Source: Saccopteryx bilineata
Lineage: Eukaryota > Chordata > Mammalia > Chiroptera > Emballonuridae
Direction of reading: 5' to 3'
Assembly: GCF_036850765.1 (NCBI RefSeq)
Contig: NC_089490.1
Span: forward strand, 130,600,522 to 130,664,521
DNA: 64,000 nt
Shown here: in pieces, positions 38,001 through 60,786 of the stretch
Layout: every line of letters begins with the position of its first letter
How positions within the stretch are numbered: position 1 is the stretch's first letter
Notes under the pieces: model-generated
The model's input: the letters and a program-made list of their open reading frames with translations, nothing else
What the model was told of the DNA's origin: nothing
Database searches by the model: none
Program-made: the position numbers and the translations under genes

Positions 38001-39718
38001 GAGGTGGGACCTGGGTGAATAGAGGAGAAGGTAAAAAGATTTGAGCAGTAGGGTCTGCTAAGAACAAGACGTGAACGTGGTCTGAGGAAAAGTGTGTGTA
38101 GAAAACAATAAGGAGAGACACGGCTTCATTGGAACCAATGTGATAAGGAATGTTGAGGAAATAAGGCTAGATGGCAGAGAATGCTCCCAGGCCTCACACA
38201 GTATTTGCAAGCAGGAGCTCAGCAGCAATACCTCCGCCACAGTCCATTTGCCTCCTTGCAGCCCAAGCCCACCCCCTTGTGACTGCATTGGTACAGTTGC
38301 TACCCTACTGCTGAAGTCCCTGCATGGAACTGCCACAACCACAGTAGCTGTGGGAAGGTGGCCATTCTGTGAATGTGTGCATGTGACCTCTGTACAAGAC
38401 AGCAGACACGGGACAAAATAAAGCAGAGAAGAAGCTGGACACATTCAGCAGCAGCAATGAATTTTAAACTCCTTTTCTCTGTCTCCCTAGCACCTTCATT
38501 GTTTGGTCAACCAGGACCACCCTCTGGGACTTCAGTGGTGGCTAAGACTCAGGTCCTGCTTACAGTGACTTAAGGTTCAGTTTTGGGGACCGTTGGGAAA
38601 CACAGGCAGAATGAGGAAAATGGGCCACCGAAAGAACATTTGTAGAGTGCACCTGGAGGGGAGCCCTCAAATGGCGATCCTGGAGGGTGGGGCACGGGAG
38701 AGCCAAGCCAGGCGGGGGGGGGGGCAGACAGAGGAATATGAGGCTGAGAGTGGGAGGTGGAAAAGCAGGTTATGTTTCCATGGTGGCCAGTACGTTAGAA
38801 TAGCTAGAAAGAAGATGGGGAGGTGGAGAGAGAAAAGGAGTAAGAGAAAGTGGCAGAGATGCCCATCAAAGCCCTAAAAGCAAGGCTGAGAAAACAGGAG
38901 GCTTGACCCAGACCCCATAGTTGTGAGGAAGGCTCACAGGGACTCAGATGAAAATGCCTCAAGGAAAGCCTGATGCCATCTCTTCAGCTCCCAGCTCCCT
39001 TTCTCTGAGAGCAGGTGCTTGCTTTGTGTGTTCTAGAACCTTCTGGGACCAACCACGGGGACAAACCATTCAGTGCCAACTAGACATGCAGGCCCAACCC
39101 TAGACCCATGGAGTCAGACTCTGAATTTGAACAAGAAGTGTACACTGGAGTCACTTGGAAGTCTCAGAAATATTCATGTGTCTGATCCTATTTCCTGGAG
39201 TCTAACGTTATTCCCAGGGGGTGGCCTGGTCTCTGCATCACTGAGCAGAGGGACAGCTAACCAATGGGGGAGCGAGCAGGACACCTGAGGAAGGGCCCGA
39301 GGAGTTCGCTGTTAGCCAAAGCCACCGGCTCACACTATGCACCATACTGTGTGCAGAGCAACCTTACTAAGTCTCTGTCTGCTTCGTTCCTCTGTGGGCC
39401 GTCTTTGGTTCAACGACTCATTTCTTTATCCCTGGGAGGCCGTTGTCTCAACAGGTGCCAGCCACTCCTGACCCCTTCGCTTGTTTGCTCTTCTCACAGA
39501 TTGATTTTCTTCTCGCCTTCTTCCTTCCTTCCGTTTCTAGATTGGTGAGCTGCTCTTTTACTTACATCTTTTGTTGGAGTCTCTTCTCTGTCCTGGGAAC
39601 TAACCAGAATCTCATGGAACTGAACCTCAGTGACAGTCCTCTGGGGGACGCAGGGATGAAGGTGTTATGTGAAATGCTCCAGAATCCTGGCTGTAATGTT
39701 CAGAGATTGTGGTAAGAA

Positions 39719-39767
<49 letters not shown>

Positions 39768-44000: not shown

Positions 44001-47000
44001 TGTGTAACTTGTAAATATATAAGCGAGAGAGAGAAAAAGATGTATATAGAGACAAAAAGAGAGAGATGAGAAGTATCAATTCGTAGTTGTGGCACTGTTA
44101 GTTGTTCATTCATTACTTCTCCTAAGTACCTTGATGGGGTGGGCAATGGGCCCAACAGAGCCAGTGACCCCTTGCTCAAGACAGCAAACTTGGGTTCAAG
44201 CCAGCGACCTTTGGACTCAAGCCAGTGACCATTGACATGATCCCACACTCAAGCAGTTGACCCCACACTCAAGCTGGTGAGTCTGCATTTCAGCCAGATG
44301 AACCTGTGCTCAAGCCAGCAACCTCATAGTTTAAAACTGGGATCTTGGTGTCCTGGGTTGATACTCTATCCACCGCTCCACCACTGGTCAGGCGTATGCT
44401 GTAAACATTTAACACAATAATAAATGTAGGGAGTGGGAAGGTGCAGAATTGGCATGGGGTTAGAAGGTGTTTACTTGCTAGTACAAAAACAGAAAAGGAA
44501 ATAAAAAGTTAACATAGAACATAAATGTACTCTTTCCATGTGTGGATTAGACTAGAAGTGCTTCCTTGAATCACAGCAGAGGGAGTGAGAGGTATGTTAA
44601 TGCTCTGCCATCTCTGTGTAAGGTTGGTCAACTGCTGTCTCACATCAGCGTGTTGCGTGGATATCGCGTCTGTCCTGAGCATGAATCAGTCCCTGACCAG
44701 ACTCTACTTGGGGGAGAATGCCCTAGGAGACTCAGGAGTTGGAGTTTTATGTGAAAGAGCAAAGCATCCACAATGTAAGCTTCAGAAACTGGGGTAAGTA
44801 AGTATTCACGGTGTCTCCTTTCAAGGATACATTATTGGGAAAATGTGGGTGTTACTCAGATGGAGTTGAGGGTGGAGAACAAAGGAGACAGGTTTTTGTC
44901 CTCCCAATTCTCTACATGCTTCTAAGATATTCATGGGGATAGTCACCCACTTTATGTGTGAACACTTCCAAGCAAGTCGATCGTTGCTGCACAATGGGGC
45001 CACTGCAGCAGGGGTGAGTTCTGATCCCAGCAGGGCACCTTCTTTGATTTCTGTGGATTAGCTTTGCTCCCAAGAGTCCGCCGAGGGGTGCTGATCTCAA
45101 TTCCCAGAGAAAACACTCACTCTCTAGTCTTTTCATCTCAGCCCTCAATTAGGAGACAGCTGAGCACCAACACCCACATAGTCATGTGGTCCTAATTAGG
45201 GACTGGTCTGTTAAAACTCATTACCTGCCAAATTTTTATTTCTGATTTTTTTTGGTGTATTTTGTTTGAAAATGGAATTAGGTAATGGAATTTAGGGGTC
45301 TGTATTGGAAAAAAAATATTGATACCATTTGGGGTTCATGGACTGTCTTGTCACAAAAATTTTGAAAGAACAGATAATATTACACACACACACAAGACAA
45401 ACTCATGTTCTATGCCAAACAGGAAAGCATTCGACATGGAGTCCTACATTACATTTCCTACACTGCTTGCACACATTTGTACCACATACAGCACATTTTC
45501 TTTGCTTTCCCTCACAGGTCCTTCCAATACATGTCCAATTGGATCAAATCTAACATCTTCAGGTACACGGCTTTTCCTTGTCACACTTGAACTGGGTCTT
45601 CCGATGACTTTAGGATTGGATAATGAGTCTTTTTTCATATATGTTCTTGCAATATTGTGTCTGAAGTCCTATAACGAGATGTTTTCATTTGAAGCAGTAT
45701 AAAGAGCATGGGCGTTAACAACAGCAACATCAATGGCATTTATAAAAAAGAGGAAAATACCACTTCTTTCCTCTAAATTTAATGCAGTACTTTTGGACAT
45801 TCCAGCCCAGCTTGTCAACATCACCTATATACTTGTTATATTGCCCTACAATGTGTGGTCTATCCACTCGACATTCTATCTTTTCTTTCTTAGAATACCT
45901 TTTCACTTTTTCTAAAGGTTGTACTCCTAAATAATTTGACATAACTTTGACACAGTTATTGTCATTCCAAATCAATGCAAAAATGTTATTACTTTCATAA
46001 TAATAGTAATCATATGCTCCATGTAGCTATCCTGTATAGCCTCTACAGACTCGTCACTGACTGATGGCCTACCAGAACGGGGTTTCTCCACCAAACTGCC
46101 GGTTTCCTTCAACTGCTTATCCCACCGTGTAATGTTATTCCTACGTGGTGGCGCTTCATTATAAACACGCCGATATTCACGTTGCACTTTGGTCACCGAT
46201 TCGAATTTAGCGAGCCACAGAACACACTGAACTTTCCTCTGTACCGTCCACATCTCGACTGGCATGGCCATGGGCTGCTCTGCTGTATACACGGTGTTAC
46301 GTCATCATCTGTGCATGCACACATGCTGCCACATCATCCTACAGAAACTGGGAGGGTTTTCCTTTTATTTGGTGCAGATTTCACATTTCTGTTGTCTTTT
46401 GTTGCTTTCCTGTGACCGGTCAAAAGTGCAACACTACTTTACAAACACACTGTACTTTGGGTTACTATGTAGTTTAACAAGTCTTCATCAAAAAAATTTT
46501 CAAATATGTCAACAGGTGATTTATTTTTCAAATGTTGAGTCATTTTTTATTTCAGTTCAGATACATTGTCGTACTGTAATGTACTACTGGAAAAGTTTAT
46601 GTCCTGTTTTTTCCAGTCACTCTTCGGCAATACTTTACGTTTTGATTTTTGCATAGATGATGGATTGTCTTCTAAGGCACTAGAATGTACTTCTAATTGA
46701 CCAGAAACATCCTGTGTAAGAGTGTCTTCTAAAATATTTTCATCAAGGTCTTTACAATCTGATACTGCATCCATGTTATTGGGAGGCAGTTCAACTATAT
46801 CGATGGTTTCTTGTTCTAATTTGTCAAAAAGTTCGTCATTTCTGAATAGTTCTTCTATATCTCTAACACTAAGAAATTCTCTAGCAGCCATACTGCCCCC
46901 AAAACTGTGGAAGTAAAACAACAACTATGAATTACTAAAGTACCTAAATATTATCAATTTTTTAACATAGCACATTCCATGAGCCCCAAATGGGGAACAA

Positions 47001-50307: not shown

Positions 50308-53300
50308 CTCTCTAAAGTGAATAAATAAAAGTAAAAAAAAAAAAAAAAAAAAGTTTCTTATAAATTTTAGGTATGAAGCCCTTATTAGAGGTATTGGCAA
50401 ATATGTTCTCCCATTGAGTGGGTTTTCTTTTCATTTTGCAAAACATTTTAGTATGATCTAGTCCCATGTGTTTATTTTTTCTTTTGTTTCCCTTGCTTGC
50501 AGTGATATATCAGAGAAAAAGAATATTGCTATGAGAAACATCTGAAACTTTACTACCTATGTTTTCTCCTAGAATTTTTATGGTTTTGAGTCTCTAATAT
50601 TTAAGTATTTAATAAATTTTGAGTTTATTCTTGCGTATAGTGTAAGCTGTCCAGTTTTATTTTTTCCATGTATCTGTCCCATTTTCCTACCCTTATTTAT
50701 TGACTAGACTAGATTTACCCCATTGTATGTCCTTGCTTCCTTTGTCAAATATTAATTGACTATAAAGATGTGAGTTTATTTCTGGGATCTCTGTTCTGTT
50801 CCTTTGATCTATATGTCTGTTTTTATGCCACGACCATGCCGTTTTGATTACTATGGCCTTGTAGTATAGTTTGTTGTTAGGTAGTGTGATTCTTCCAACT
50901 TTATACTTTTTTTTTTATTATCAAGATCACTATTGCTATTTGGGGTCTTCTGTGGTTTCATGTACATTTTTAGAATATTTATTTTAGTTCTGTGAAATGC
51001 TCCATTGGCATCTTGATAGGAATTTCACTGAATCTATACATTGTTTTGGGTAGAATGAACATTTTAATCATGTTAATTTTTTCTATCTGTGTACATGGTA
51101 CATGCTTCCACTTAATGTGTATCTTCTTCAGTTTCTTTCTTCAGTGTCTTAAATTTTCCAAGTACAGATATTTTACATCCTTGGTTAAATTTATTCTTAC
51201 GTATTTTATTCTTTTTGAAGCAATTGTAAATGGAACTGTTTTCTTAATTTTTCTATTTGATAGTTCATTATTTGTGCATAAAAATGCAGCTGATTTCTGG
51301 ATATTTATTTATTAATTTTAATTTTTAGTAAGTAAATGAGAGAGACAGGAAGGAAGAGAGATGAGAAGCATCAATTCATAATTATGGCACTTTAAGTTTT
51401 TCATTGATTGCTTCTCATATGTGCCTTGACAGAGGTGGGGAGAGGGCTCTAGCCAAGTCAGTGACCCCTTGCTCAAGACAGTGACCTTGGGGTTCAAGCT
51501 AGTGACCTCTGGGCTCAAGCCAGTGACCACGGGGTCACATCTATGATCCCACATTCAAGCTGGTGATTTCATACTCAAGCCGGATGAGCCCACGCTCAAG
51601 TCGGTAACCTCAGAGTTTCAAACCTGGGTCTTAGCATCTTAGGTTGACGTTCTATCCACTGTGCCACCTCTTGGTCAGGCAGTTTCTGGATTTTTAGTTT
51701 GTATCTTGCTACTTTACTGAGTTAATTTATCAGTTCTTATAGTTTTTTCTGGAATCTATAGGGTTCTCCATATAAGGTATTATGTCATCTGCAAATAATG
51801 ACAGCATTACTCTTTCTTTTCCAATTTGGATGCCTTTTGTTTCTTCTTTTCTGAATGCTGAGGCCAGACTTCTAGTAGAATGTTGAATAAGAGTGGTGCT
51901 AGGGGACATCCCTGTCTGGTTCCTGATCTTAAGGGAAACACTTTTAGTTTTTGTGCATGAAGTATAATGTTGGCTGTGGGTTTGTCATATATGGCCTTTA
52001 TTATATTGAGGTATGTCCCTTCTACTCCCACTTTGGTGAAAGTTTTTTATTGTAAATGAAGACTGGTTTTTATCAAATGCTTTTTCTGCATCTATTTATA
52101 TGACCATGTGGTTTTTATCCTTAATTTAAAAAATGTGCATCATGTTAATTGATTTGCAGGAATTGTACCAACCTTGCATCCCTGGAATAAATCCCACTTG
52201 ATTGTGGTAGATGACTTTTTTTTAACGTATTACTGGATTCAGTTTGCTAATATTTTGCTGATGATTTTTAATAAGTATGTTCATTAGGGATATTGATGTC
52301 TAATTTTCTTTTTTTTGTAGTGTCTTTATTTGGTTTTGGAATTAGGATGATGCCATGTCCAAGGAAGGCTGGCATTGAGGACTCTCCTCCCCGTTTTTTC
52401 TATAGGCTGGTGAAGTCAGGCCTGACATCAGATTGTTGTCCAGCCCTGTCCTCAGTGCTGAGCACTAACTGGAACCTCACACACCTTTACTTACGGGGTA
52501 ATGCTCTTGGAGACATGGGGGTGAAGCTACTATGTAAGGGACTCTTGCACCCCAACTGCAAGCTTCAGATGTTGGAGTAAGTTTCTTAGGTTATTAGGGC
52601 AATGGGAATACATGGTGGGTAAGGGGGGAGTCAGGGGAAGTGATGATGAGATAATCTGTATCTCTGAAGTGATGGTGTCTTCTGAGGGTTTGGCTTTTTA
52701 CAGAATCATGAGACTAGGACAAATTCTACTTTCAGGTGGTGTAAAGGTAGAGACTGGAGCCGCTTTCCCCACATATCTTTCTACCACAAAGGAGTGGGGG
52801 CGGTATGGCTCTTGTGTTTTAAGGAAATTTGGGAAAGACATACAATTTGGGGAAAATCAATTCAGAAACCACTATTGCTAATTGGGTCTGGATAATCCAG
52901 TGGACCAGAAAAAATACTCCTCCGTGCAAAGAAAACAACTGTGGCACACACAACAGTTCTGGGCTTGTTGACACTGCCTTTCCACTTTATTTGAAACATC
53001 ACAGGCTAAGGGACCTGGGTGGAGGGTAAGAGGACATTTGCTTTGATCACCCCCCCCCTTTTTATTGTCTTTTATTTTTTTAAAGAGTTTAGAAAAATTT
53101 TTTTAATTTATTAATTTTAATGTGGTGACATTGATAAATCAAGGTACATATGTTCAGAGAAAACATCTCCACATTATTTTGGCATTTGATTATGTTGCAT
53201 ACCCCTCACCCAAAGTCAAATTGACCCCCCCCCTTTTTTTGGCAGACTAGACAACTGCAGCCTGTCTTCACACTGCTGCTGGGATCTTTCCACACTTCTG

Positions 53301-56300
53301 ACCTCCAACCAGAGCCTACGGCAGCTGAGCCTGGGCAGCAATGACCTGGGTGACCTTGGGGTCATGCTGTTCTGTGAGGTGCTGAAGCAACAGAGCTGCC
53401 TCCTGAAAAGCCTTCAGTAAGTGCCCCCTGCAGAGATGTGAGGGACAGGGCTCTGAGCACTAAGGAAAAGTGGCCAGTCACAGAATTCCAAGATGGTTTT
53501 TTTGCACTCAGTGTGAAGTTGGGCTTGGGCCAGGTGTTGCAGATATTTTAGGGTGAATGAGTCATGAACTTCATTCAGGCATTTAGAATGTTCCACGTTC
53601 AGTTGGGTGTGGAAAAGCCTTCCATCTATATTCCTAAAAGAAATGTAAGGCCCAATGCAAGTGGCCAAAGGGGGTTACATTTCTAGACAGGGGCTTAGAC
53701 TTTGTAGAGCTAGACCTTGTCTATGGTTCATCCTGATTGCAAAGGTCTTGCCATAGAGGAGTGTTGTTGGCCTTATTTTTGAGGATTTCTAAATGGAGAG
53801 AGAGTGCTCCAGAAACATCAAGATGAGAAATTCCATAAAATTCAGCCAGTGCCATGTGTTGGGACCCCTGGCTCCCTTCCATCACAGGGACAGCACTGAG
53901 GTACTCATTACCTCCCAAAGTAAGAGCTTCCTGTTAATGTCCTGCCTTCAGTTCAACCTGCAGATTACACTCTGGACTTAACTATTACTGTTTGTTTTTT
54001 TAAATTTTCTGGAGAGAGAGAAGAACAGACAGACAGGAGGGAGAGAGATGAGAAGCATCAATTCTTTGTTGCAGCATCTTTGTTGTTCATTGATTGCTTT
54101 TTTATATGTGCCTTGACCAGGTGGCTCCAGCAGAGTAAATGACCCCTTGCTCAAGCCAGCGACCTTGGGCTCAGGCCAGCAATCTTTGAGCTCAAGCCAG
54201 TGACCATGGGGTCATGTCTATTATCTCATGTTCAAGTTGGTGAGCCCATGCTCAAGGCTCGCATTCAAGCTGGTGACCTTGTGGCTTCAAACTTGGGTCC
54301 TCACCATCCCAGGTCAATACGCTATCCATTGTGCCACAGCCTGGTCAGGCTTCCCTAGACTTGAGTGGCAACACACTACCCTCTGGGTTTTCTCCTACTT
54401 CATTGGCTTGTTTCCGCTCTGTTTTATCTCTTGTTTCTCATTGACCTGATCTTTACAAACTGAATCCCTGAAACTCACCCATTGTCTAATTTTTCTTCAT
54501 ACTTTCCCCTTCATTTATACTGTCTAGTATACTGGCTTTTTCCACATATGTGCTGAACACCCCAAATTATATTTCCCTGAATACCATGTCCAAATGCTGG
54601 TCTGACTTTTTCACTTAGGTTGTCTAATAAGCCTCCCAAACTTTGCATATTCGAATTGCAACCTGTGCTTTTCTACTTTGTCTGCAACCTGTTTCTTCCC
54701 CTTCTCAGTCAGTGGTAACTTGTCTGAATCACTCCGGACAAAAAATCCTTATGTCCCCTTTGATGCCTCTTCTTGCTTATGTATGTACATTCTAGCGGCA
54801 TGTCCTGTAAGAGTATAAATTCTATTAGCCCAGGGACTTCTGTCCTTGTCCATGACCTCAAGGCAGAGAACCGACTAGAATGCATGTTTGAATAAATAGA
54901 AGTTTGACTCAGCATTGCATTCTTGGGATGACATAATAGAGCACATTTGTTATAGGAAAAGTCAAAATTCCCAGAGCTAAGTGAAACAGAGGAGCAAAGG
55001 ACAGGACGGTGGGGGTGAAGCTGGGATATTGCTATACATGGGATCACTAATGGACACTCTGGGGATGAGGGACAAGCTCAAAATACACTTGGGAGTCGAA
55101 GGATGCTGTCAAACCTGTCTTGTTGGCTTGGCTGTCGTAACAAATTAGCACAGACTGCGTGCCTTAAGTGATGGACATTTGTTTCTCACAGTTCTGGAGG
55201 AAGGAATGTCCAAGATCTGCTGACTTGGTTTCTGGTGAAAGCTCTCTTCTGAACTGTCAGACAGTGCCCTTGTCCTGTGTTCTCACATGGCAGAGAGAGA
55301 GAGAGAGAGAGAGAGCGAGCACTGCTATCTCTTCCTGTAAGAACACTAATCCCATCGCAAGGACCTACCCTAATGACCTCATCTAACCCTAGTTGTATCC
55401 CAAAGGCCTTCTTTCCAAATACCATCCCATTGAGGGTTAAGGCTTCAACATACAAATTTTGGAAAAACATAAATTTTCAATCCAGAGCACAGTCAAATCA
55501 AGATTGTTAGACATGATACAGGACAAATGGTAGGATTTTTCAGTTAAGTGTCAAGGAAAAGAAAAGGGGCAATGACTTCTGTCACAGATGACTGAAGAGG
55601 CATACCAAGCAACTGCAGCATATGGACATGTAATAATACTAAAAAATTATCAGACAGTTGATGAAATTTAAACATGTTGAATATGTGTTGAGATTAAAGA
55701 ATTACTGTTAACTTTTTAAGCTGTGAGAATGCTACTGTGGTTATGTTTTTAAAAAGTCTTTGTGCTGCCCTGGCTGGTTGGCTCAGTGGTAGAGCATTGG
55801 CCTGGCGTGCAGAAGTCCCGGGTTCGATTCCCGGCCAGGGCACACAGGAGAAGCGCCCATCTGCTTCTCCACCCCTCCCCCTCTCCTTCCTCTCTGTCTC
55901 TCTCTTCCCCTCCTGCAGCCAAGGCTCCATTGGAGCAAAGTTGGCCCGGGCGCTGAGGATGGCTCTGTGGCCTCTGCCTCAGGCACTAGAATGGCTCTGG
56001 TTGCAACAGAGCAACGCCCCAGATGGGCACAGCATTGCCTTCTGGTGGGCGTGCCGGGTGAATCCCCGGTTGGGTGCATGTGGGAGTCTGTCTGACTGCC
56101 TCCCCGTTTCCAACTTCAGAAAAAATACAATACAATACAATACAATACAATACAATACAATACAATACAATAAAATAAGTAAAAAAAAAAAAAATCTTTG
56201 CCCTGGCTGATTGACTCAGTGGTAGAGTGTTGGCCTGGCCTGTGGAAATCCTGGGTTTGATTCCTGGTCAGGGCACACAGGAGAAGTGACCATATGCTTC

Positions 56301-56992
56301 TCCACCCTTCCCCCCCTGCTCCTTTCTCTCTCTCTATTGGAGCAAAGTTGGCCCAGGTGCTGAGGATGGCACTGTGACCTCCACCTCAGGTGCTAAAATA
56401 GCTTGGTTGCCAAGCAATGGAACAGTGGCCCCAGATGGTTAGAGCATTACCTGGTAGGGGGCTTGCCAGGCGGATCCCAGTCAGGGTATATGCAGAAGTC
56501 TGTATCTCTGCCTCTCCTATTCTGACTTAAAAAAAAAAAAAAGAGTAAAAAGTCTTCTACATTTATTGTTGTACCATACAATATTTGTAGCATGTGTAAC
56601 ATGCTATGTTTAACTGAAACAAGATTGGCCACGGACTATTAATTGTCAAACTTACATCACAAGCATATGGGGATTCATTACACCATTCTCTGTACATTTA
56701 CATATGTTGAAATATTTTCAAACTTGCAGGTTACAAATATAACATAAACCGCATTAGGTATGAAGTGCAACACTGGGGAGCTTAGCAGTGTGTGAGAATA
56801 AGGGATGTGAGATGAGATTTTTAAGGCCAAAAACTCTGCACATGTTCATGTAAAGAATATAACTCAAGACTTTCTGTTTACTTTTGCAGGTTGTGCAAAA
56901 TGTATTTTAATTATGATACAATCTGCGCATTAAAAACACTTCAAGAAGAAAAGCCTGAACTGACTGTCGTCTTTGAGCCCTGGCAGAAGTGA
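32502..56992 (+). CDS. NLRP3: NLRP3 (NALP3/cryopyrin), nine coding exons, intact
   Basis: Cytosolic pattern-recognition ATPase that oligomerises after K+ efflux or organelle stress, recruits ASC and pro-caspase-1, and drives IL-1beta/IL-18 maturation and pyroptosis. Joined exons are 32502-32778, 34650-34754, 35437-37195, 39541-39711, 42793-42963, 44623-44793, 52406-52576, 53246-53416 and 56890-56992. They give 3,099 nt with the stop, 1,032 residues, no internal stop or frameshift, and every intron GT-AG. Domain order is pyrin (1-92), linker and polybasic segment (93-127), FISNA/NACHT/WHD/HD2 (128-714), LRR (715-999) and a C-terminal cap (1000-1032). Human NLRP3 is 1,036 residues by my recollection; four net residues are explained by a start two codons later, a linker five shorter, a FISNA loop two longer and small changes elsewhere. 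Walker A is GSAGIGKT (221-228) and Walker [11 protein letters not shown] (293-302). Identity is near certain; expression and activity cannot be judged from DNA. Confidence 0.98.
32800..33950 (-). mobile_element. Old L1 fragment in NLRP3 intron 1
   Basis: Antisense L1 3' sequence in order: CACATAACATAAAATTTGTC, GGAATCTCTTATAAGTGGAA, AATATTCCACGGTATG, ATTGTGAATAATGCTAATATG. Interrupted by a 151-bp hAT element. Confidence 0.75.
33127..33277 (+). mobile_element. Non-autonomous hAT element, 151 bp, nested in L1
   Basis: CAGAGGCGGATTTAA and TTAATCCACCTCTG ends; duplication CCTCARAC at 33119-33126 and 33278-33285. Confidence 0.85.
34077..34468 (+). mobile_element. SINE-A in NLRP3 intron 1
   Basis: AGAAAYYCAAGTCAGGG at 34060-34076 and 34469-34485. 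Ends 181 nt before exon 2. Confidence 0.93.
34650..34754 (+). CDS. NLRP3: NLRP3 coding exon 2: linker and polybasic segment
   Basis: A 105-nt exon between a long (TTTTC)n pyrimidine tract ending in CAG and donor G|GTAATC. It encodes residues 93-127. Key parts are [16 protein letters not shown], with Cys101 matching human Cys108 (proposed PYD disulfide), and the basic end ICKKRK. The basic end continues into exon 3 as [13 protein letters not shown], the segment that binds PI4P on dispersed trans-Golgi membranes. The stretch before Cys101 is five residues shorter than in human. The exon lies in a frame that a single-exon ORF scan misreads. Confidence 0.95.
34965..35166 (-). mobile_element. SINE-V in NLRP3 intron 2
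   Basis: Includes a (GA)13-like run at 35007-35032 and an ACACTGGCTGGGGATTGAAC core. Confidence 0.75.
35437..37195 (+). CDS. NLRP3: NLRP3 coding exon 3: FISNA, NACHT, WHD, HD2, acidic loop
   Basis: 1,759-nt exon, residues 128-714, acceptor TCTCTCCACAG, donor TATGG|GTAAGG. FISNA covers about 128-213. NACHT begins with Walker A GSAGIGKT (221-228; the second position is Ser where human has Ala227) and includes Walker [11 protein letters not shown] (293-302, Asp297 and Asp300) and the sensor-type [10 protein letters not shown]. Ser290 in KKASK matches the PKA/PKD site human Ser295. The WHD/HD2 part keeps [13 protein letters not shown] and the [11 protein letters not shown] region. Lys685 is followed by ten consecutive Glu (686-695), corresponding to human Lys689 and the acidic loop. 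The FISNA loop at 189-199 differs sharply from human and has no Ser-Pro. No stop codon or indel breaks the frame. Confidence 0.98.
37321..37672 (-). mobile_element. SINE-C in NLRP3 intron 3
   Basis: Perfect 18-bp duplication CAGTTGCCTCAGCTATAT at 37303-37320 and 37673-37690, so a young insertion. It begins 126 nt after exon 3. Confidence 0.95.
37691..39540. other. NLRP3 intron 3, remaining unique sequence
   Basis: No further repeat recognised. It ends in a strong pyrimidine tract and two AG dinucleotides (39498-39499 and 39539-39540) that could each serve exon 4. Confidence 0.5.
39541..39711 (+). CDS. NLRP3: NLRP3 coding exon 4: LRR unit 1
   Basis: 171 nt, residues 715-771, acceptor CCGTTTCTAG, donor TG|GTAAGA. 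The peptide starts [19 protein letters not shown] and ends [17 protein letters not shown], one pair of ribonuclease-inhibitor-type leucine-rich repeats. Ile723 stands where human has Ser728. Trp726 replaces a human Arg in the next helix. A second usable-looking acceptor lies 41 nt upstream and a (TG)21 run starts nine bases after the donor. Confidence 0.96.
39721..39762. repeat. (TG)21 microsatellite next to exon 4 donor
   Basis: Uninterrupted run beginning nine bases after the exon boundary, directly following GTAAGAATC. Confidence 0.95.
39812..40178 (-). mobile_element. MLT1-type LTR in NLRP3 intron 4
   Basis: GGGCTGCCATTAACAATG, CAGAAATTTATTTTCTTGTG, GGATTAGGGCCTGCTTTAAT and CACAATTTAGTCCATTGCA are the standard reverse-orientation MLT1 series. 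Confidence 0.7.
40179..40977. other. NLRP3 intron 4, unique sequence
   Basis: Nothing recognised. Confidence 0.4.
40978..41191 (-). mobile_element. SINE-B in NLRP3 intron 4
   Basis: (GA)n body and GTCACCACAGGTCAGGC head complement. Confidence 0.88.
41200..41774 (-). mobile_element. L1 3' end in NLRP3 intron 4
   Basis: TGAATTTATTGGGGTAGCAT at 41213 through ACACTTGGGCTGCTTCCATG at 41736: 3' UTR then ORF2 end, antisense. Confidence 0.85.
41775..41847. mobile_element. Palindromic mariner-type MITE in NLRP3 intron 4
   Basis: Arms CTGCTCACAAAAATTAGGGG... and its complement are 26-27 bp and essentially perfect, separated by about 21 bp. AT-rich flanks (TATA left, TTTA right) suggest TA targeting. 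The transcript would fold into a single hairpin. Confidence 0.8.
41848..42792. other. NLRP3 intron 4 end, unique with (TTATTG/GT)n patches
   Basis: A GT-rich microsatellite lies at about 42237-42273. No other repeat is recognised before exon 5. Confidence 0.45.
42793..42963 (+). CDS. NLRP3: NLRP3 coding exon 5: LRR unit 2
   Basis: 171 nt, residues 772-828, acceptor GGCTCCCAG, donor TG|GTGAGT. Peptide begins [11 protein letters not shown] and contains [14 protein letters not shown] before LKKLW. Ser801 aligns with human Ser806, the CK1alpha site that blocks NEK7 binding, but the following acidic residue is His and the human Gly810 is Glu. In human, skipping of exon 5 yields an inactive in-frame form; the same skip would be in frame here. 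Confidence 0.96.
43340..44027 (+). mobile_element. Old L1 3' end in NLRP3 intron 5
   Basis: GGTGGGAATGTTAAATGG, AAATACCCCAGAGAGTTG, CACCCAGCAGTGGTGTTCAC and CCATGGGTTGGGGAATTGGG in order. Confidence 0.8.
44028..44392 (-). mobile_element. SINE-C in NLRP3 intron 5
   Basis: Sits at the tail of the L1; head complement CACCACTGGTCAGGC. Ends 230 nt before exon 6. Confidence 0.85.
44623..44793 (+). CDS. NLRP3: NLRP3 coding exon 6: LRR unit 3
   Basis: 171 nt, residues 829-885, starting [19 protein letters not shown] and ending CKLQKLG. Cys832/Cys833 match the palmitoylated pair human Cys837/838, and Tyr856 matches human Tyr861 (PTPN22 target). The acceptor is TGTGTAAG|G: an AAG trinucleotide with a short, broken pyrimidine tract, the weakest 3' splice site in the gene. 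Donor GG|GTAAGT is strong. Confidence 0.95.
45340..46912 (-). pseudogene. piggyBac transposase fossil in NLRP3 intron 6
   Basis: Minus-strand N-terminus [20 protein letters not shown] opens at 46886 and continues acidic ([12 protein letters not shown]) to [19 protein letters not shown] near 46460. A mariner-type element then intervenes. The C-terminal part resumes near 46000 as [51 protein letters not shown] and a Cys-containing tail. The central DDD catalytic region is largely absent, so the copy is dead. PGBD-family proteins are the domesticated relatives. Confidence 0.8.
46019..46452 (-). mobile_element. Truncated Tc1/mariner-type element inside piggyBac fossil
   Basis: The 5' terminal repeat, about 107 bp, ends at 46452 (ACAAACACACTG, then TA). 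A minus-strand frame gives [20 protein letters not shown] and [17 protein letters not shown], matching the copy at 59702. The 3' terminal repeat is missing. Confidence 0.8.
46925..47434. other. NLRP3 intron 6, AT-rich; may include piggyBac outer end
   Basis: TTAAAATTCCCACGTGAGAC followed by GCAGTTTAA near 47318-47352 could be a piggyBac terminus at a TTAA, but I cannot pair it with the other end. Confidence 0.35.
47435..47613. repeat. Imperfect 43-50 bp tandem repeat, four units
   Basis: Units start TGTGCTGTCACTGGTGGG (47435), TGTGATGTCACTATTGGG (47478), TGTCCTGTCACTAGTGTG (47528) and TGTGCTTTCACTGGTGGG (47571), each followed by an ACTCTYATCTTCTG-like block. Confidence 0.75.
47700..48171 (-). 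mobile_element. Old ERVL-type LTR remnant in NLRP3 intron 6
   Basis: GAATATTATAAAGAATACAA and CATGGAGCTGGGGTGCCCCA resemble mammalian ERVL LTRs read in reverse. Cut at the right by a SINE. Confidence 0.45.
48172..48568 (-). mobile_element. SINE-A, NLRP3 intron 6
   Basis: Full head complement ending GCCAACCGGCCAGGGC at 48568; has a G11 run at 48316-48326. Confidence 0.9.
48596..49005 (-). mobile_element. SINE-A, NLRP3 intron 6, tandem neighbour
   Basis: AATTATTCATTYATT at 48581-48595 and 49006-49020. Same orientation as the previous copy, 27 bp apart. Confidence 0.92.
49264..49626 (-). mobile_element. SINE-C in L1
   Basis: CTATGAGTGT on both sides; head complement CACCGCCTGGTCAGG. Confidence 0.88.
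49905..50085 (-). mobile_element. SINE-V in L1
   Basis: GAAACATTGATCTGTTTCTG and GTGCCCTAACTGGGGGTCAA. Confidence 0.75.
50151..50348 (+). mobile_element. SINE-B in L1, young
   Basis: Perfect AAAAGTTTCTTATA at 50137-50150 and 50349-50362; intact GTCGCCGGTTCGAAACCC. Confidence 0.94.
51308..51679 (-). mobile_element. SINE-C in L1
   Basis: TTTCTGGAT on both sides; CACCTCTTGGTCAGGC head complement. Confidence 0.87.
52406..52576 (+). CDS. NLRP3: NLRP3 coding exon 7: LRR unit 4
   Basis: 171 nt, residues 886-942, [19 protein letters not shown] to [12 protein letters not shown]. Acceptor CGTTTTTTCTATAG, donor GA|GTAAGT. The preceding intron is 7.6 kb of piled-up transposons, and L1 sequence comes within about 50 nt of the exon, leaving only a short stretch of older intron for the branch point. 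Confidence 0.96.
52577..53048. other. NLRP3 intron 7, unique sequence
   Basis: No repeat recognised before the C9T5 tract at 53050. Confidence 0.45.
53064..53223 (-). mobile_element. Truncated L1 3' UTR directly before exon 8
   Basis: GGTGACATTGATAAATCAAG and TATGTTGCATACCCCTCACC match the L1 3' UTR copy at 60377-60453. The 15-bp duplication A-C9-T5 at 53049-53063 and 53224-53238 brackets it, with a T-rich tail remnant at the left, as expected for target-primed insertion on the minus strand. Confidence 0.88.
53246..53416 (+). CDS. NLRP3: NLRP3 coding exon 8: LRR unit 5
   Basis: 171 nt, residues 943-999, [20 protein letters not shown] to CLLKSLQ. Donor CA|GTAAGT, so unspliced reading stops at once. 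The acceptor is a C9T7GGCAG tract at 53225-53245; directly upstream lies a 160-bp L1 fragment flanked by a duplication of that tract. Confidence 0.96.
53417..53994. other. NLRP3 intron 8 start, unique sequence
   Basis: Nothing recognised. Confidence 0.45.
53995..54349 (-). mobile_element. SINE-C in NLRP3 intron 8
   Basis: Several CTCAAGC units; head complement GCCACAGCCTGGTCAGGC. Confidence 0.87.
54350..55119. other. NLRP3 intron 8, unique sequence
   Basis: Nothing recognised. Confidence 0.4.
55120..55498 (-). mobile_element. MLT1-type LTR in NLRP3 intron 8
   Basis: GGCTGTCGTAACAAATTAGC, TTCTCACAGTTCTGGAGGAA, CCTACCCTAATGACCTCATC and AAGGCTTCAACATAC; contains a (GA)13-type run at 55291-55315. 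Confidence 0.7.
55766..56190 (+). mobile_element. SINE-A with (TACAA)n tail, NLRP3 intron 8
   Basis: Head GCCCTGGCTGGTTGGCTCAG. Its tail is nine or so tandem ATACA units (56127-56171) before the A run. TCTTTG flanks it on both sides. Confidence 0.88.
56199..56545 (+). mobile_element. Older SINE-A, NLRP3 intron 8
   Basis: Diverged head CCCTGGCTGATTGACTCAGT. AAAAAGTCTT occurs both before the previous SINE (55751-55760) and after this one (56546-56555), so the younger copy inserted next to this element's left duplication. Confidence 0.78.
56890..56992 (+). CDS. NLRP3: NLRP3 coding exon 9: C-terminal cap
   Basis: 103 nt of coding sequence after acceptor ACTTTTGCAG. Residues 1000-1032 read [18 protein letters not shown], then [15 protein letters not shown] and TGA at 56990-56992. 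The conserved end ELTVVFEP is intact; the last residues are WQK where human ends SW. It codes the terminal LRR cap helix and strand. The splice-in frame is confirmed by CA|G completing Gln999. Confidence 0.95.
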
Positions 56993-60339: not shown

Positions 60340-60786
60340 TTTATATATAAATAAATTTTTATTTTAATGGGGTGACATCAATAAATCAGGGTACATACAT
60401 TCAAAGAAAACATTTCCAGGTTATCTTGTCATTTAGTTATGTTGCATACCCATCACCCAAAGAGAGATCTACCTCTGCCACCCTCCATCCAGTTCTCTCT
60501 GTACCCCTCCCCCTCTCCTCCCCCTCTCCCTCCTTCCCTCCCCCCACCCCCCATAGCCACCACACTCCTGTTCATGCCTCTCAGTCTCGCTTTTATGTCC
60601 CACTAATGTATGGAATCCTGCAGTTCCTGTTTTTTTCTGATTCGCTTATTTCACTCCGCACAATGCTACCAAGACTCCACCATTCCGCTATAAGTGATCC
60701 AATGTCACCATTTCTCCTAGCTGAATAATATACCATGGTGTTTATGTGCCCCATCTTCTTCATCTAGTCCTCTATTTTTTTTACAG
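60340..60786 (-). mobile_element. L1 3' UTR and ORF2 end
   Basis: GGGGTGACATCAATAAATCA at 60370, long CCCCTCCCCCTCTCC pyrimidine region, then CCACTAATGTATGGAATCC. Confidence 0.85.

What the first reader, a model, noticed from the sequence alone, without database searches (positions are those of the whole stretch)
53049..53245. L1 inserted between the exon 8 polypyrimidine tract and its old branch point
A 160-bp minus-strand L1 3' UTR piece (53064-53223) is bracketed by a perfect 15-bp duplication, A-C9-T5, which is itself the exon 8 pyrimidine tract. Only 22 nt of older intron (53224-53245) now precede the exon. The original branch point must be at least about 197 nt away, outside the usual 18-44 nt range. 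L1 supplies a plausible replacement: CTCAC with A at 53208, 38 nt before the exon, or TTGAT with A near 53189. So a retrotransposon may have supplied, or weakened, the branch point of an NLRP3 LRR exon. Skipping exon 8 stays in frame.
Basis: partly seen in the sequence, partly recalled or inferred. Interest (0 to 1): 0.8.

Follow-up and report, generated by a model that had tools for sequence, protein, structure and literature searches.

The report
L1 insertion splitting NLRP3 splice acceptor
In a sac-winged bat's NLRP3 gene, an old jumping-gene fragment landed inside the signal that marks the start of one exon; it duplicated part of that signal and probably rebuilt what it displaced, so the exon is most likely still read normally.

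Summary
A 160-bp minus-strand L1 3' end (53064-53223) sits between perfect 15-bp copies of the exon 8 pyrimidine tract in bat NLRP3, 22 bp from the exon. The host is close to Saccopteryx leptura (98% protein identity).

In the joined empty site the best motif is TTGAT at -25. So the insertion most likely swapped one ordinary branch point for another 3 nt away. Chance gives a yTrAy within reach at 21% of 331 L1 truncation points.

No evidence of exon 8 skipping was found: the frame is open, and 0 of 12 named bat records lack exon 8. The left tract copy plus antisense poly(A) makes a possible decoy acceptor leading to early stops. RNA and related bat DNA were out of reach. An ordinary exon-proximal insertion, tidily placed.

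The parts
52577..53245 (+). NLRP3 intron 7 (669 bp now; 494 bp with the insert and one tract copy removed)
   Evidence: exon limits; empty-site join
53046..53046 (+). best-motif branch-point candidate of the empty site, ctttgAtca, -25 there, 200 nt from the exon now
53049..53063 (+). left copy of the 15-bp target-site duplication (A C9 T5)
53064..53223 (-). 5'-truncated L1 3' end, antisense to NLRP3; decayed poly(A) at the 53064 side
   Evidence: 85% over 105 bp to 60358-60462, which joins ORF2-end-like sequence
53084..53092 (+). decoy acceptor AGs (53084-53085, 53086-53087, 53091-53092) behind the left tract copy plus antisense poly(A), 29 of 33 pyrimidines at 53049-53081; use would give early stops
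53214..53215 (+). AG that limits the AG-exclusion zone (28 nt) of the exon 8 acceptor
53220..53225 (+). junction-made branch-point motif: L1 ATTG plus duplication AC; candidate A53224 at -22
   Evidence: only yTrAy in the zone; 4 Watson-Crick + 2 G-U pairs with U2
53224..53238 (+). right copy of the target-site duplication, now the exon 8 pyrimidine tract
53246..53416 (+). NLRP3 exon 8, 171 nt LRR exon

Best explanation
An antisense, 5'-truncated L1 inserted by target-primed reverse transcription with its nick in the T-run of the exon 8 pyrimidine tract. The target-site duplication copied the whole tract and its leading A, so the exon kept tract and AG. The L1 end put TTG before that A, making aattgAccc at -22, which most likely serves as the main branch point in place of the old ctttgAtca at -25 (or of the same A in its old context). 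Exon 8 is then spliced about as before. Shown: insertion, duplication, sequences, open frame. Inferred: which A branches, and normal inclusion.
For: Perfect 15-bp duplication flanking an antisense L1 3' end. A53224 is the only yTrAy in the 28-nt AG-exclusion zone; among the 5 TNA adenines listed in the last 60 nt it has the lowest U2 duplex energy (-2.7 kcal/mol; the other four +1.0 to +1.9), and more fixed-register U2 pairs (4+2) than A53208, A53218 and A53189, the three others counted. -22 lies in the usual range (paper passages). Frame open through exons 3-9; exon 8 peptide 56/56 identical to S. leptura; 0 of 12 named bat records (10 species) lack exon 8.
Against: No RNA evidence. Motif and distance predict branch points imperfectly; a far A53128 (-118, outside the zone) has a lower duplex energy (-3.6). 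Some TNA within reach arises by chance at 68% of 331 L1 truncation points, and at all 93 points inside the insert itself, so several As may be used, A53208 included. Insertions this close often do change splicing: 5 of 23 assayed Alus within 100 bp of an exon did (PMC6326789 passages), and NF1 Alus inserted in pyrimidine tracts caused skipping (PMC3219598 passages). Protein records are mostly gene predictions, and the presence of the insert in those bats is unknown. The empty-site motif is today's left flank and may have drifted.
Confidence: 0.6

Rival explanations
1. L1 body supplies the main branch point (A53208, CTCAC, -38); A53224 is minor.
For: yTnAy match, -38 within the usual range; an AG 6-7 nt downstream can be bypassed (PMC2991248 passages).
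Against: Lacks the purine at -1, fewer U2 pairs (4+0), sits outside the exclusion zone.
Confidence: 0.15
2. The insertion weakened the acceptor and exon 8 is partly skipped in frame in this bat, trimming an LRR module.
For: The insert is 22 bp from the acceptor, inside the 50-bp zone where LINEs are depleted in human introns (PMC3088655 passages); 3 NF1 Alus in pyrimidine tracts of acceptors went with skipping (PMC3219598 passages); antisense L1 can bind splicing repressors (PMC6108849 passages); a review reports bat-specific NLRP3 splice variants in Pteropus alecto and Myotis davidii, the exon not being named in the passages seen (PMC11599095). One rodent record (P0108, Nannospalax) joins exon 7 to 9 cleanly.
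Against: Tract and AG kept intact and a good branch candidate present; 0 of 12 named bat records lack exon 8; over the 120 listed records exons 4, 5, 6, 7 and 8 are scored absent in 42, 10, 50, 3 and 2 (approximate script).
Confidence: 0.12
3. The left tract copy, old branch region and antisense poly(A) form a decoy acceptor; some transcripts use it, gain a stop within 12 codons after the junction and are destroyed, lowering NLRP3 output.
For: 29 of 33 pyrimidines at 53049-53081, AGs ending at 53085, 53087 and 53092, old TTGAT 40 nt before 53086; 3 of 3 extensions hit stops.
Against: Decoy AGs follow A or G or lie past purines, weaker than the authentic CAG (recalled preference); the old branch motif pairs poorly with U2; no transcript evidence.
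Confidence: 0.1
4. The C9T5 duplication or insert is an assembly artefact.
For: Homopolymer tracts are error-prone (recalled); no reads were available.
Against: The insert has L1 homology, with poly(A) placed as expected for target-primed insertion.
Confidence: 0.03

Closest known systems
Exon-proximal antisense LINE insertions ('underrepresentation zone' elements; PMC3088655, passages)
   Same: Short, antisense, within 50 bp of an exon.
   Different: On the acceptor side, which those authors find to hold fewer elements, and inside the pyrimidine tract.
De novo Alu insertions into pyrimidine tracts of NF1 acceptors (PMC3219598, passages)
   Same: L1-endonuclease-dependent insertion into a tract, with duplication.
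   Different: Those went with exon skipping in patients; here the frame is intact and a branch motif lies at -22.
Transposons introducing or removing branch points (OGDH reporters PMC7969005, section 18; BLOC1S2 MIR/AluSp PMC6822395, passages)
   Same: Element sequence changes the set of branch-point candidates.
   Different: Here the motif straddles the junction, its A coming from the target-site duplication, and serves an old coding exon.
Human NLRP3 LRR exon skipping (PMC6642158, passages)
   Same: In-frame LRR exon modules of the same gene.
   Different: There exons 5 and 7 are skipped; 'exon 8' has 0 occurrences in that main text. That its exon numbers equal those used here is assumed, not checked.

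Membership tests
L1 retrotransposon insertion (target-primed reverse transcription) | target-site duplication of about 7-20 bp | tested here: met
   15/15 bp; range from PMC3219598 passages
L1 retrotransposon insertion (target-primed reverse transcription) | poly(A) at the 3' end next to the duplication | tested here: met
   A-rich, decayed end: minus strand of 53064-53081
L1 retrotransposon insertion (target-primed reverse transcription) | homology to L1 3' UTR joined to ORF2 | tested here: met
   85% to a copy that joins ORF2-end-like DNA; the ORF2 name is recalled, Pfam gave no hit
L1 retrotransposon insertion (target-primed reverse transcription) | nick site resembling TTTT/AA (recalled consensus) | tested here: inconclusive
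   nick in a T7 run followed by GG; position ambiguous by 2 nt
Functional mammalian branch point | yTnAy/nnyTrAy motif at the usual distance inside the AG-exclusion zone | tested here: met
   A53224
Functional mammalian branch point | lariat formation at that A | not testable with these tools
   no RNA data
Alternatively skipped NLRP3 LRR exon | records lacking the exon | tested here: not met
   0 of 12 named bat records lack exon 8; this species itself is not represented by RNA, and 2 of 120 records over all mammals were scored as lacking it

The most novel reading that the evidence does not exclude
Target-primed insertion into a pyrimidine tract is inherently self-repairing: the duplication recopies tract and leading A, L1 supplies the bases that turn that A into a branch point, and the left copy is left as a decoy acceptor. 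In this bat the split acceptor tunes NLRP3 output by shunting some transcripts to a stop-bearing form.
Probability: 0.08. Interest if true: 0.7.

Novelty: new member of a known kind. Interest (0 to 1): 0.32.

Why it matters
It is a clean example of an acceptor that seems to have survived a retrotransposon landing inside it, in a gene central to inflammation in bats. It suggests a rule that can be counted genome-wide: insertions into tracts may be tolerated when the duplication carries the tract and the junction restores a UNA motif. If the decoy acceptor were used, it would be a cis-acting brake on NLRP3 in this lineage. As it stands it is most likely neutral.

Tried and rejected
Longer duplication with a 3-nt loss (TTGATCACC versus TTGACC): only TTG is shared beyond the 15 bp, and the L1 sequence as recalled has TTG there, so not adopted. 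A53189 as branch point: outside the AG-exclusion zone. Old branch point still used over 200 nt: AGs intervene (from 53084 on). Selection for the junction motif: not needed; a yTrAy within reach arises at 21% of 331 L1 truncation points, 47% of the 93 points inside the insert, 22% of 7482 intron-6 offsets and 19% of 9125 window offsets. Age: 16/105 differences to one other copy, K2P 0.174, suggests an old element, but one pair gives no date. L1 copies in viral and prokaryote contigs: one exact pattern, 0 matches. Papers: the search for bat NLRP3, splice variant and exon 7 gave 0; the Saccopteryx/NLRP3 search listed 7, none opened; the main bat NLRP3 paper is not held. The first exon tally wrongly flagged exon 9 as missing because of the stop sign in the query, and differs from the second for some exon 4 calls; exon 9 was dropped and the count redone.

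Full report
What is there. Window 53064-53223 is a 160-bp insert between perfect copies of ACCCCCCCCCTTTTT at 53049-53063 and 53224-53238. The 15-mer occurs twice in the window and not on the other strand; 2 of 5000 Markov shuffles of intron 7 hold any such repeat. The insert looks like an antisense L1 3' end: 85% over 105 bp to 60358-60462, a copy that continues into DNA 73% alike to the end of an ORF2-like frame (the ORF2 name is recalled, Pfam found nothing). The decayed poly(A) lies at the low-coordinate side, as expected for a minus-strand element.

The gene. The five LRR exons 4-8 are 171 nt each, the frame is open to the stop, and skipping exon 8 keeps it. The NACHT exon and exons 7-9 match NLRP3 chains in the PDB, and Pfam calls NACHT. 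The closest protein is NLRP3 of Saccopteryx leptura, 98% over the query; the species is therefore a close relative, perhaps S. bilineata (inference; genus list).

Branch points. I listed every TNA adenine from 13 to 120 nt before each of seven acceptors and counted fixed-register pairs with U2 for selected ones. For exon 8 the zone-defining AG is 53214-53215. Inside the zone are A53218 (gTCAa, -28, 3+1 pairs) and A53224 (tTGAc, -22, 4+2 pairs, duplex energy -2.7). A53208 (cTCAc, -38, 4+0) lies just upstream; A53189 (-57, 1+3) is outside; A53128 (-118) has a lower duplex energy (-3.6) but is far outside. The motif of A53224 is built from L1 TTG and the duplication's AC. In the joined empty site the near candidates are A53046 (tTGAt, -25, 1+3 pairs), A53049 (aTCAc, -22, 4+1) and, upstream of the zone, A53029 (gTAAg, -42, 3+1). 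So the branch region is restored to within 3 nt, or kept exactly if A53049 was the old branch point. Exons 3, 4, 5 and 6 also hold a yTrAy in their zones; exons 7 and 9 hold none, so exon 8 is not the weak acceptor of the gene by this measure.

Chance. A yTrAy within reach appears at 21% of 331 L1 truncation points, 47% of the 93 inside the insert, 22% of 7482 offsets in intron 6 and 19% of 9125 window offsets; any TNA at 68%, 100%, 81% and 77%. The junction motif needs no selection.

Does exon 8 skip? Of the 120 listed NLRP3 proteins, exons 4, 5, 6, 7 and 8 were scored absent in 42, 10, 50, 3 and 2 by an ungapped best-match script, which is approximate. The two for exon 8 are P0108 (Nannospalax, clean 7-9 junction) and P0056 (Mirounga, unrelated tail). 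Of 12 named bat records (10 species) 0 lack exon 8. These are mostly gene predictions, the 120 are the best of 7750 hits among 7982 scored candidates, and the presence of the insert in those bats is unknown. In human cells exon 5 is skipped often and exon 7 rarely (33% and 2.6%, PMC6642158 passages). A review says that Pteropus alecto and Myotis davidii have bat-specific NLRP3 splice variants (PMC11599095 passages); the passages seen do not name the exon.

Decoy acceptor. The left tract copy keeps the old branch region and gains the antisense poly(A), giving 29 of 33 pyrimidines, then AGs ending at 53085, 53087 and 53092. 3 of 3 extensions of exon 8 from there reach a stop within 12 codons after the junction; the third was translated from 53092, one base before the true start behind that AG (53093), so its frame is off by one and its stop is not established. 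The first two stand. Use of the decoy is untested.

Literature. LINEs are depleted within 50 bp of human exons, and fewer elements lie near acceptors than donors (PMC3088655 passages). Three NF1 Alu insertions in pyrimidine tracts went with skipping (PMC3219598 passages). Of 23 assayed Alus within 100 bp of an exon 5 changed splicing, most towards skipping (PMC6326789 passages). Transposons can add or remove branch points (PMC7969005, abstract, passages and section 18; PMC6822395 passages). Motif and distance ranges come from PMC8531310, PMC9636908 and PMC2991248 (passages), the AG-exclusion idea from PMC1431707 (passages). The listings of paper searches showed no report of this insertion; that is not proof of absence.

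Verdict. Observation confirmed; interpretation partly supported; an ordinary exon-proximal insertion with a tidy, testable anatomy.

Noticed in passing
NLRP3 protein records: A double absence of exons 4 and 6 is scored in 6 of 12 named bat records (Rhynchonycteris naso, Myotis brandtii, M. yumanensis, Eptesicus fuscus, Rhinolophus ferrumequinum, Phyllostomus discolor), exon 4 alone in one Myotis brandtii record and exon 7 in one Rousettus record.
   Followed up: partly
window 52380-52405 and 56869-56889: The acceptors of exons 7 and 9 have no yTnAy in their AG-exclusion zones, so they look weaker than that of exon 8 by this measure.
   Followed up: partly
window 44600-44622: The exon 6 acceptor ends in AAG rather than CAG or TAG; exon 6 is the exon most often scored absent in the 120 records (50 of 120).
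   Followed up: no
window 39712-39760: A (GT)n microsatellite starts about 10 bp after the exon 4 donor.
   Followed up: no
window 46547-46924, minus strand: A 125-aa acidic frame that resembles the start of a piggyBac-type transposase (recalled); no significant Pfam match.
   Followed up: partly
window, 10 places listed: Ten tRNA-model matches, most likely heads of tRNA-derived SINEs (inference).
   Followed up: no
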